From contig JANBVI010000075.1 in NCBI GenBank assembly GCA_024239075.1, positions 1 to 64,000 on the forward strand: a stretch of DNA of 64,000 nt, read 5' to 3'. Of this stretch, positions 1 to 37,960 are shown piece by piece. Under the pieces are notes generated by a model. That model made no database searches. It was given only the letters and a program-made list of their open reading frames with translations, and was not told where the DNA came from. The stretch is from Fischerella sp. CENA71. GTDB taxonomy: Bacteria; Cyanobacteriota; Cyanobacteriia; Cyanobacteriales; Nostocaceae. Numbering within the stretch: position 1 is the stretch's first letter; each line of letters opens with the position of its first letter. A program made the position numbers and the translations under genes.

Positions 1-209
1 TTCAAAGAAAGAGGGTTTATTTCTCTGATGAAGAACATCTAAAACCTTAATTTTTATGCAAATTTAACTTTGATTATATTCTATCAGTTGTTTGTGTAAT
101 TAATTCTGCTTAGTTACTTACTTCAGTTTCAAGTAAAGAGAACAAAGAAGAAATTGCTTACCGTATAGCACTTGCATTAGAGAGAGGAGAAATTTCTGCG
201 GAAGAAATT

Positions 210-19227: not shown

Positions 19228-19268
19228 GGGATTGGGAAGCGGGGACAAGGGAGACACGGGAGATGGGT

Positions 19269-19409
19269 CAATACGGTTCGGATAAGACAAATCGATTAGA
19301 CATCTAATACCCTGTAGAGACGTGCCTTAGCGAAGCCATGCGCTATAGCGCTATTGGCACGTCTCTACATCCCAAAGCATGACGAAAAATTCTTAACCGA
19401 ACCGTATTG
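19269..19409. mobile_element. 141-bp MITE with 19-bp terminal inverted repeats
   Basis: CAATACGGTTCGGATAAGA (19269-19287) is repeated in inverted orientation at 19391-19409 with one mismatch. The element is flanked by a perfect 10-bp direct duplication GGAGATGGGT (19259-19268 and 19410-19419). An inner inverted pair TGTAGAGACGTGCC (19313-19326) and its complement (19356-19369) forms the core. There is no coding capacity, so it depends on a transposase supplied elsewhere. Confidence 0.85.
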
Positions 19410-34419: not shown

Positions 34420-36450
34420 ATGACGATGTTCCTGACAGATTCTGCGGACATGACTAGGATTCATTTCTCTTCAAGGTTGAATCTGAAGCAACGTAGTGAG
34501 TTGGGTCAGTTTTTTACTCCCGCCCCAGTTGCCCGTTTTATGGCTGGAAAATTTACTAGTCTATCGGGTCACATCAATCTTTTAGATCCTGGAGCTGGAG
34601 TTGGGTCATTAACTGCTGCTTTTGTAGAGCAGTTATTGGCAAATCCCAACGATGTTAAAAGTTGCTTGATAACAGCATATGAAGTTGAATCAGCCTTCCT
34701 ACCCTCTTTGAAGCAATGTCTTATAGAGTGTTGTACAGCTTTAAAGAGCAGAGGAATTCAAGCAAATTATTGTTTGTATGAAGAAAGTTTTATAGAAGCT
34801 TTTACAAAAAAAAAATTACCACTTTTTACTACGTCATCAATTAAATTTACTCATGCAATTCTGAATCCACCTTATAAAAAAATTCACAGCAAATCAATAG
34901 AAAAAAAGCTCCTTTCAACGCTTGGAATTGAAACAGTAAATCTATATAGTGCATTTGCTTGGCTTACTATATTACATCTTGCCGAAGATGCAGAGATAGT
35001 TGCAATCACGCCCAGAAGTTTCTGTAATGGTACGTATTTTCGTCCTTTTCGGAAAGCTTTTCTAGAAAACATGGCGCTAAAAAAAATTCATATTTTTGAG
35101 AGCCGTTCAGCAGCTTTTGCAGAAGATGACGTATTGCAAGAAAATATTATTTTTCATGCTAGCAAAACTAAAATTAAGCCTGATTATGTAGAAATTACTA
35201 GTAATTATGAAACTGAATTAGATAATTTTTCAGAATTAAGATATGTTCCTTACAGCAAAGTAGTTGAAGCCAATGATTATGAAAGATTTATTCATATTGT
35301 GACAAACTCTCTTGAAGATTCTTTGAGAGTGCAAATGGATAAATTTTCATCTACATTGGATGAAATTGGTTTAGAAGTTTCGACGGGTCCGGTTGTCGAT
35401 TTTCGTCTCAAATCGTCTTTAAGAGCTTGCTTGGATGAGCAGAGTGTTCCACTACTGTACCCAGAAACTGTGAAGGCAGGGAAAATTTTATTTCCACCTA
35501 GCAATCCTCGTAAGGCGATCGCAATTGAGCAAAACCAACAAACAAGCAAATGGTTAATTCAATCAGGTTGGTACGTTTTGACAAAGCGTTTTTCTGCTAA
35601 GGAGGAAAAGCGCCGTGTTGTTGCTGCTGTCTGTTCTCCTTTAGCCGCGCCAGCGCTAGGTATAGAAAATCATCTTAACTACTACCATGCTAGAGGTAAG
35701 GGAATGAACCCTGACCTGGCACGAGGTTTAGCAGCATTTCTCAATTCAACTTTATTTGATCATTACTTCCGGCAGTTTAGTGGACACACACAAGTCAATG
35801 CAACAGATTTGCGTAGAATTAAGTACCCTTGCAAAGATGATTTAATCAGACTAGGAAGCCAAATTGGTGATTCTCAGTTTGATCAGGAGCAACTTGATCA
35901 GGTTGTACATAAAACTTTGTCGATTATGAGCGAAGTCACAAATGCAGTTCGGGCTGCTAAACGAATTGAGGAGGCTCTTGCAATTCTCAAAGATATTTCT
36001 GCTCCAAGAGAGCAACAGAACGAACGATCAGCACTTTGCTTACTCGCATTGGCAGACATTCGGCCTGAAACACCTTGGAATCAAGCAACAGCACCAAGAC
36101 GCGGAATTACAGAAATGATGGATTGGTTTCGCGATTACTATGGGAAACAATACGCACCAAATACACGCGAAACAGTTCGACGCCAAACGATGCACCAGTT
36201 TGTACAGATGGGGATAGTTGTTGAGAATCCAGATCGACCAGACCGACCAATTAATAGCCCCAAATGGTGTTATCAACTTCATAAACAAGCATTATCACTT
36301 CTTAAATCCTATGGCTCTGAGCAGTGGGAAGAGGCTCGTCGAAATTATGCTGTTTCTGTTACAAATTTATTGCAGGCTAGGGATCGCAACATACCGATGA
36401 TTCCCGTAAGCTTACCTGACGGTCAAGCCATTCAGCTATCATCAGGCTGA
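34420..36450 (+). pseudogene. BsuBI/PstI-type methyltransferase with fused endonuclease N-terminus (5' part of a split gene)
   Basis: This ORF encodes 676 aa. Residues 1-502 are an adenine-N6 methyltransferase: motif I LLDPGAGVGS (54-63), motif IV NPPY (149-152), and about the 500-aa length of M.PstI and M.BsuBI. From Met503 the frame continues into the N-terminal domain of a BsuBI/PstI endonuclease (RIEEALAILK, QQNERSALCLLALADIRPE, then a winged-helix region with RRQTMHQFVQMGIVVENPD). It stops 2 codons into the element at 36447-36685, where a TGA is created. The catalytic half lies at 36696-37151 in the same reading frame once the element is removed. The methyltransferase part looks intact. 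Confidence 0.85.
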
Positions 36451-36685
36451 CGGGGCGACAAAATAGCCTGAAAAGCTCATGAGATAAAGTATGTAGCAAT
36501 TTATGGTAAGAAAAGATAGGTCTCATGAGTGTCAATAAGACCTATCTAATGACAATATTGCCTGAACAGAGTTCGTGACCGAGCTAATGAAACTAAATCG
36601 CAATAAGCAGAAGTATTATCAACGAGGTCTGAGCGCTATGAAGCTTATCATGTCTGTATCCTAGCTATTTTTGTCGCCCCGTCAG
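36447..36685. mobile_element. 239-bp MITE-like element splitting the R-M gene
   Basis: The ends are inverted: CTGACGGGGCGACAAAATAG at the left and the complement of CTGACGGGGCGACAAAAATAG at the right (17 identical bases, then a 1-base indel). A perfect 9-bp duplication, ATCATCAGG, flanks it (36438-36446 and 36686-36694). Inside are a hairpin (AGATAGGTCT/AGACCTATCT) and short open stretches ending in NKQKYYQRGLSAMKLIMSVS, a basic tail that could be a transposase C-terminus. It looks like an internally deleted insertion sequence. Confidence 0.9.
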
Positions 36686-36695
36686 ATCATCAGGC

Positions 36696-37151
36696 GGACA
36701 AAATATACTAATAAAAGACATTTTGGAAAGCTTCTGTCCCAGATTTACACCTGGAGGTAGAGTTCTCTATGTGGGCGATGCTGGGGATAAGTTCATTATT
36801 AATGAAACTCAAAAATTCCGAGAAATGGGGATTGAATTAGATCCTCACGGTAAAATGCCAGACATTGTAGTTCACTGTCAACGGAAAGATTGGCTTGTAT
36901 TGATAGAAGCTGTGACTAGTCATGGTCCGGTTAACTTGAAACGTCACAATGAATTAAGGCAGCTCTTTCAGTCTGGTCATAAAGGATTAGTTTTTGTTAG
37001 TGCTTTTCCCAGTCGTAAGGAAATGACTAGGTATCTTGCTGAGATTTCTTGGGAAACTGAAGTTTGGGTAGCAGATCAACCTGATCATATGATTCATTTC
37101 AATGGGGAAAGATTTCTTGGCCCTTATGAAGTCCCAAAAAATCGTTATTGA
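36696..37151 (+). pseudogene. BsuBI/PstI-type restriction endonuclease catalytic part (3' part of a split gene)
   Basis: This is a 151-codon open segment with no convincing own start; TTG 36723 is the first candidate. It carries the catalytic core of BsuBI/PstI endonucleases: PRFTPGGRVLYVGDAGDK, then DIVVHCQRKDWLVLIEAVTS with acidic metal ligands, and the C-terminal GERFLGPYEVPKN. It is the continuation of the upstream ORF. Removing the element and one duplication copy joins LSSG to GQNILIKDIL in frame, giving a chain of about 827 aa. In the current state restriction is presumably lost. Confidence 0.85.
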
Positions 37152-37369: not shown

Positions 37370-37960
37370 GTGGTCTCTCCCTCTTCTCCTTTCATAAATC
37401 ATTCTCATAAAACTATCACTCGGTATTTGAAACAACGCTCTTTTATCCCACTTCCACCAAATATACTCTGGAAGATTGAAAAAGGAGTAGTACGAAATTT
37501 AACCTGGCATGAAGACGGTACACTCGTCACTTTAGGTATTTGGGGACCAGGAGATGTTGTTGGTAGAAGTTTATCAAAAATAGAACCATATGAAATAGAA
37601 TGCTTAACCAAAGTAGAAGTTAGTATTTTTCCTGTAAATGAATCCTATCAACTCACAGAGATATTACTAGCACAGATAGAACAAGCAGAAGCATTAATGA
37701 TGATTCGCAGCTACAAAACAGTAGAAATTATGCTAATTAAATTGTTGAGTTGGTTAGCTAAAAAATTTGGTCGTGCAGTAGAAAATGGTCAATTAATTGA
37801 TTTACGTCTAACTCATCAGGACATTGCAGAAATGTTAAATTCAACTCGCGTGACGATTACGAGAGTTCTCACTAATTTAGAAGAAAGAGGACTAATTCAT
37901 CGACTGCCTTTACATCGAATTGTGCTGAAAGAAGAACAGATATGGCACTATGAAATATAG
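37370..37960 (+). CDS. Crp/Fnr-family regulator, probably CysR-like
   Basis: The protein is 196 aa with a GTG start at 37370 and AGGAG about 8 bases upstream. A short cyclic-nucleotide-binding-like beta domain (about residues 30-105; LGIWGPGDVVGRSL) is joined by a long helix to a Crp-type helix-turn-helix at about 147-185 (LRLTHQDIAEMLNSTRVTIT). The cNMP pocket looks reduced, as in regulators that do not bind cAMP. It converges on a sulfate-transport cluster. In Synechococcus PCC 7942 a Crp-type CysR sits in the sulfate-permease region, so the same role is likely. Confidence 0.82.
   Translation: MVSPSSPFINHSHKTITRYLKQRSFIPLPPNILWKIEKGVVRNLTWHEDGTLVTLGIWGPGDVVGRSLSKIEPYEIECLTKVEVSIFPVNESYQLTEILLAQIEQAEALMMIRSYKTVEIMLIKLLSWLAKKFGRAVENGQLIDLRLTHQDIAEMLNSTRVTITRVLTNLEERGLIHRLPLHRIVLKEEQIWHYEI

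What the first reader, a model, noticed from the sequence alone, without database searches (positions are those of the whole stretch)
34420..37151. Single-chain BsuBI/PstI-type restriction-modification protein split by a MITE, with frame fully recoverable
The 5' ORF encodes a methyltransferase (about residues 1-502) running straight into the endonuclease N-terminal domain from Met503. The 3' segment encodes the endonuclease catalytic core. Removing 36447-36694 (element plus one 9-bp duplication) joins codon 676 (GGC) to GGA at 36696 with no frame change, giving about 827 aa. From family knowledge, M.PstI/M.BsuBI are about 500 aa and their endonucleases about 320 aa, so the ancestor was a precise M-R fusion. 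The present state would keep methylation and lose restriction, an R-M system caught in decay.
Basis: partly seen in the sequence, partly recalled or inferred. Interest (0 to 1): 0.85.

Follow-up and report, generated by a model that had tools for sequence, protein, structure and literature searches.

The report
Fused restriction-modification gene broken by transposon
A cyanobacterial gene that joins a DNA-protecting and a DNA-cutting enzyme in one protein has been cut in its cutting half by a mobile element, while the protecting half stays whole; the short "MITE" seen in the assembly is most likely the two ends of a longer mobile element glued together by the assembler.

Summary
The two ORFs, their frames and the 9-bp duplication are real. 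ORF 34420-36450 (676 aa) is an adenine methyltransferase running into the HTH domain of a BsuBI/PstI endonuclease; 36696-37151 encodes the catalytic core. The fusion is natural: 35 of 78 named loci carry M, HTH and core in one ORF, and Westiellopsis prolifica has the uninterrupted gene and empty site at the syntenic place. The "MITE" is probably an assembly scar: its 239 bp are the outer ~120 bp of both ends of a ~1.27-kb IS4-family element; 14 of 15 other near-identical ends in the assembly are cut at 119-125 bp from the tip, seven at contig ends, and the IS interior was not found. So a full IS very likely interrupts the gene. Restriction by this gene should be lost; methylation may persist. 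Of 89 family genomes with full-length M, 19 lack a fused-length frame (hand count). CTGCAG is nearly absent from stretches of ten carriers (1 seen, 95.4 expected), less so from ten non-carriers (29 seen, 102.3 expected), suggesting it is the target.

The parts
34420..36450 (+). 5' ORF, 676 aa: methyltransferase plus N-terminal HTH domain of the endonuclease, ended by TGA at the first bases of the insert
34420..35925 (+). Methyltransferase domain, residues 1-502 (PF07669 Eco57I-type; NPPY motif readable in the translation)
35959..36372 (+). BsuBI/PstI endonuclease HTH domain PF17728 (residues 514-651)
36438..36446 (.). Left copy of the 9-bp target-site duplication ATCATCAGG
36447..36685 (+). 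239-bp sequence read as a MITE: ~120-bp left end plus ~119-120-bp right end of an IS4-family element; the central joint near 36566 is very probably an assembly scar
36686..36694 (.). Right copy of the 9-bp target-site duplication
36696..37151 (+). 3' fragment with the endonuclease catalytic core (PF06616 at about 36699-37109), cut off from its start

Best explanation
The locus was a single-chain restriction-modification enzyme: an N6-adenine methyltransferase (1-502), then a PstI/BsuBI-type endonuclease (HTH domain, then catalytic core), probably acting on CTGCAG. An IS4-family element of about 1.27 kb inserted at the start of the catalytic core with a 9-bp target duplication. The IS end brings a stop codon at once, so the protein is now methyltransferase plus HTH domain without the nuclease core, and the core fragment is left without its start. 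The assembly lost the IS interior and abutted two ~120-bp contig ends, which looks like a 239-bp MITE. Shown: domains, frames, duplication, empty site, fused relatives, how the assembly cuts the other copies, the link of CTGCAG scarcity with the gene. Inferred: a full-length IS at this copy, loss of restriction, kept methylation, the target.
For: Domains and one-model coverage; SdaI is the best solved relative of both endonuclease pieces. 35 of 78 loci fused in one ORF; W. prolifica intact, 827 aa, flanks 90-96% identical at the same place. Scar: besides the window copy, 9 near-identical left ends and 6 right ends were read in the own assembly; 8 of 9 left ends stop matching at element position 119-125 (the ninth at 105, followed by foreign-looking sequence) and 6 of 6 right ends begin at 120-121; 7 of the 15 lie at contig ends. 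Pairing of flanks: four exact 9-bp duplications among 70 left-right pairs (0.0003 expected) plus one 10-bp one; four of these five pairs join different contigs. Of 66 contig starts, 21 share with another start an exact or near-exact stretch of 117-126 bp at base 1-4, as 30 of 32 matching pairs. The base just past the cut in C72, C45, C27 and C47 differs from the window's centre and by my codon reading fits a continuous transposase. Six copies with both ends in other genomes span 1,207-1,536 bp, five with a 9-bp duplication (one, L057, holds 10 N). Transposase: IS4-family model, 301.5 bits, cut-off 152. In the own genome only 30-33-residue right-end pieces or other relatives of it were found. 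CTGCAG: ten fused carriers 1 of 95.4 expected, four genomes with broken core 0 of 38.0, ten non-carriers 29 of 102.3; strongest difference among 64 palindromes (p = 7.6e-8, uncorrected).
Against: No reads were available, so the scar is inferred. A real 239-bp element would, at this k, also give contigs cut near its middle. The other 45 of 66 contig starts share no such stretch with another start (contig far ends were not compared). At C18 the sequence beside the cut end is unique in the genome, so not every junction is repeat against repeat; at C52 it occurs twice. Five left and two right ends found no partner by duplication. Two of 10 non-carrier genomes also lack CTGCAG, and many other palindromes are scarce in all groups; for the distant fused clade CTGCAG is only second among 64. 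M dN/dS between window and W. prolifica is 0.39, above the other nine pairs (0.13-0.20), so some relaxation of M is not excluded.
Confidence: 0.85

Rival explanations
1. The insert is a real 239-bp internally deleted derivative (MITE) of the IS, mobilised in trans.
For: The window contig reads through it, the duplication is perfect, and a same-genus genome has IS ends only 708 bp apart (G001 C48).
Against: Its joint coincides to about 1 bp with the place where this assembly cuts 14 of 15 other near-identical ends; no second complete 239-bp copy was found in the genome; the base beyond the cut in four contigs does not fit the window's centre.
Confidence: 0.07
2. The system still works as two pieces: methyltransferase-HTH (676 aa) plus a separately translated catalytic fragment started inside or after the insert.
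For: The 3' piece is open, 96% identical to the intact relative, with dN/dS 0.115; a TTG start exists at 36723.
Against: If the insertion is recent, little decay is expected anyway; the fragment lacks the first 17 positions of PF06616.
Confidence: 0.05
3. The whole locus is dead, methyltransferase included, on its way out of the genome.
For: The same-genus genome G002 has deletions in this gene and in G001 neither part was found.
Against: M is full length, and between two lineages that both lost the core its dN/dS is 0.129 (G004-G114), though when each lost the core is unknown.
Confidence: 0.15

Closest known systems
BsuBI/PstI/SdaI endonucleases and their methyltransferases
   Same: HTH domain then catalytic core (PF17728, PF06616); SdaI (2ixs) is the best solved relative of both pieces; CTGCAG (PstI's site, PMC4081073 passage) is the best predicted target
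   Different: M and R are joined in one chain in the relatives; in this strain the core is separated by an insert
PADLOC model PDLC03359 (MTase_II, 840 positions)
   Same: Covers methyltransferase, HTH and core in the same order; both window pieces fall on it
   Different: The window copy is interrupted between model positions 695 and 699
Type IIC restriction enzymes (R and M in one protein)
   Same: Both activities expected from one polypeptide; fusion of head-to-tail genes was proposed as their origin and built for Eco29kI, and BsuBI is listed there among head-to-tail systems (PMC3039593, passages read)
   Different: Most Type IIC enzymes have the nuclease at the N terminus and cut away from their site (PMC4081073, passages read); here the order is M then R, with a PstI-type nuclease
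IS4-family insertion sequences
   Same: Transposase model NF033591, inverted ends beginning CTGACGGGGCGACAAAA, 9-bp duplication, about 1.27 kb in the closest full copies
   Different: The window shows only the two ends

Membership tests
BsuBI/PstI restriction endonuclease | Both Pfam domains above curated cut-off, in order | tested here: met
   191.7 and 197.8 bits, cut-off 27 each, on the two pieces
BsuBI/PstI restriction endonuclease | Cleaves CTGCAG or a related site | not testable with these tools
   Only indirect: CTGCAG scarcity linked to gene carriage
Single-chain (Type IIC) R-M enzyme | M and R in one uninterrupted ORF, in the window itself | tested here: not met
   The ORF stops at 36450
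Single-chain (Type IIC) R-M enzyme | M and R in one uninterrupted ORF, in the relatives | tested here: met
   35 of 78 named loci; W. prolifica 827 aa
Single-chain (Type IIC) R-M enzyme | Both enzymatic activities in one protein | not testable with these tools
   No assay possible
MITE | Short non-autonomous element truly present as such in the genome | tested here: inconclusive
   Sequence fits two contig ends of a longer IS abutted at the ~120-bp cut of this assembly; no reads
IS4-family element | Family transposase between matching ends, with direct target duplication | tested here: met
   Met for full copies in other genomes; at the window copy only ends and duplication are seen

The most novel reading that the evidence does not exclude
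Loss of the nuclease core with retention of methyltransferase plus HTH domain is a recurrent, selected outcome in this fused family: in 17 of 19 truncated copies the ORF runs to about reference residue 600-690, keeping most or all of the HTH domain (positions partly worked out by hand, no test against chance, genomes related). The M-HTH protein would then be a working solitary methyltransferase whose DNA reading or stability depends on a domain borrowed from the endonuclease.
Probability: 0.2. Interest if true: 0.55.

Novelty: new member of a known kind. Interest (0 to 1): 0.4.

Why it matters
It gives a case of restriction switched off by a mobile element inside a one-protein R-M gene, with an intact sister allele at the same place, and points to CTGCAG as the target of a widespread cyanobacterial enzyme family. 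It also warns that a "MITE" in a draft assembly can be two glued contig ends.

Tried and rejected
Real MITE: rejected as the most likely reading because of the shared ~120-bp cut. Separate M and R genes as the recent ancestor: rejected for this lineage; separate genes occur in 19 of 78 loci, all 43-47% identical. One-sided decay (only R ever lost): rejected as absolute; G002 has deletions in M, G192 a broken M with the R part still open, and in G165 and G206 the match lacks the start of M or all of it. ATGCAT as target: near carriers 18 of 64.2 expected, controls 43 of 71.6, a weaker difference than CTGCAG. Relaxed selection on M could not be decided from five sequences.

Counts and choices: 19 of 89 (11 of 27 in the clade at 64-100% identity) were counted by hand from the table, taking matches over at least 475 of 502 residues and calling a frame under 790 aa not fused; single-base sequencing errors are not excluded, and the genomes are related, so events are fewer than genomes. 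The left and right ends counted in the own genome are the near-identical ones: 16 of the 24 matches; the other 8 (73-86% identical) were left out. Of the ten non-carrier genomes, seven are printed without a match in both; three (G016, G032, G034) are in neither printed match list, and I took them as among the unprinted genomes without a match. The six full IS copies were those of ten fetched for which I took both ends as found.

Literature: nine searches listed no paper on a natural fused PstI-type enzyme, judged by titles and starts of abstracts only, and some listings were cut; of two papers I read passages. The library is open-access only and REBASE was not available. The name SdaI's role of the HTH domain in DNA reading is recalled, not looked up.

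Full report
What is there. ORF 34420-36450 encodes 676 aa and stops at the first bases of an insert; a second open stretch runs from 36696 to 37151. The first holds an Eco57I-type methyltransferase (40.6 bits, cut-off 25.3) and PF17728, the second PF06616. A PADLOC model of 840 positions covers both pieces in order. SdaI, entry 2ixs, is the best solved relative of both endonuclease pieces.

The fusion. The genome-contig scan kept the best 80 of 126 matches, 78 distinct named loci. In 35 of 78 the methyltransferase, HTH domain and core lie in one ORF; in 19 the M ORF ends near residue 502 and the core follows; 10 have a partial or out-of-frame core; 12 show none; 2 end at a contig edge. In 42 of 78 the two stretches that flank the window's insert abut with no residue between them. 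W. prolifica IICB1 has the whole 827-aa protein, continuous DNA at the window's insertion point, and flanking DNA 90-96% identical in the same order.

The insert. The 239-bp element has 24 matches in the own genome, one of them (the window's) complete. Besides the window copy, 9 near-identical left ends and 6 right ends were read out. Eight of the 9 left ends stop matching at element position 119-125, the ninth at 105; all 6 right ends begin at 120-121. Seven of the 15 lie at contig ends. Counting the window, 10 left and 7 right flanks give 70 pairs: four share an exact 9-bp duplication (0.0003 expected), namely the window with itself, C26 with C27, C55 with C77 and C55 with C52; C44 and C45 share 10 bp. 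Four of these five pairs lie on different contigs although the IS must have joined them. Of 66 contig starts compared, 32 pairs share a stretch, 30 of them 117-126 bp at base 1-4, involving 21 contigs; I infer an assembler k near 121. At C44, C55, C43 and C14 the left end runs straight into sequence that also starts other contigs. At C52 the neighbour occurs in one other place; at C18 it is unique, which I cannot fully explain. In other genomes like ends enclose 1,207-1,536 bp, with a 9-bp duplication in five of six copies inspected (one copy contains N). The transposase matches IS4-family model NF033591. A search of the own genome with that transposase found relatives 28-75% identical and right-end pieces of 30-33 residues at 70-77%, nothing longer that belongs to these ends. 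I conclude that the IS interior was lost in assembly and that a full IS lies in this gene; reads would settle it.

Effect. The stop comes with the left IS end, so it does not depend on the missing interior. The remaining protein keeps the whole methyltransferase and HTH domain. M is conserved between lineages (dN/dS 0.13-0.20 in nine of ten pairs, 0.39 for window against W. prolifica).

Relatives with the same fate. Of 218 family genomes, 120 have an M match, weak ones to other methyltransferases included, and 112 a core match. By hand count 89 have M over at least 475 residues and 19 of these, the window's included, no fused-length frame. Fischerella sp. PCC 9431 and F. muscicola PCC 7414 carry the gene at the same place with different deletions in the core. 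Lesions in M occur too (G002, G192).

Target. With a maximal-order Markov expectation, CTGCAG was seen 0 times in the window against 13.6 expected. In new stretches, ten near carriers gave 1 against 95.4, four genomes with a broken core (the own one included) 0 against 38.0, ten carriers of the more distant clade 2 against 40.7, ten genomes without the gene 29 against 102.3. Among 64 palindromes CTGCAG differs most between near carriers and non-carriers (p = 7.6e-8; Mann-Whitney 0.0007) and between broken-core genomes and non-carriers (p = 0.00011), and is second for the distant clade (p = 0.0027). These p-values are not corrected for 64 tests. G001 and G034 among the non-carriers also show none. 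Genomes are related and other enzymes may share the site, so the link is suggestive, not proof.

Verdict. A mobile-element disruption, ordinary in kind, of a single-chain PstI-like enzyme of a known kind, with a probable assembly artefact in place of the MITE, and two useful by-products: a predicted target and repeated loss of the nuclease core.

Noticed in passing
   Followed up: partly
L013, bases 1-45 (own contig C55 start): The contig starts with a stretch that looks like a library adapter or transposon end (recalled, not tested) next to a cut IS end.
   Followed up: no
window 1-120: The first ~120 bases of the window are a repeat end shared with the starts of contigs C2, C8, C21, C26 and C63.
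   Followed up: no
window 19268-19383: A 116-bp intergenic stretch with a palindromic centre equals the start of contig C30.
   Followed up: partly
L054 (G001 C48), 190-897: IS ends 708 bp apart: a possible real internally deleted copy, or another scar.
   Followed up: no
window 37370-37960: A Crp-family regulator lies just downstream of the gene.
   Followed up: no
stretches, counted: GTGCAC is absent from 40 kb of each of ten near carriers (45.6 expected in all) and scarce in controls (11 of 58.0): another avoided site.
   Followed up: no
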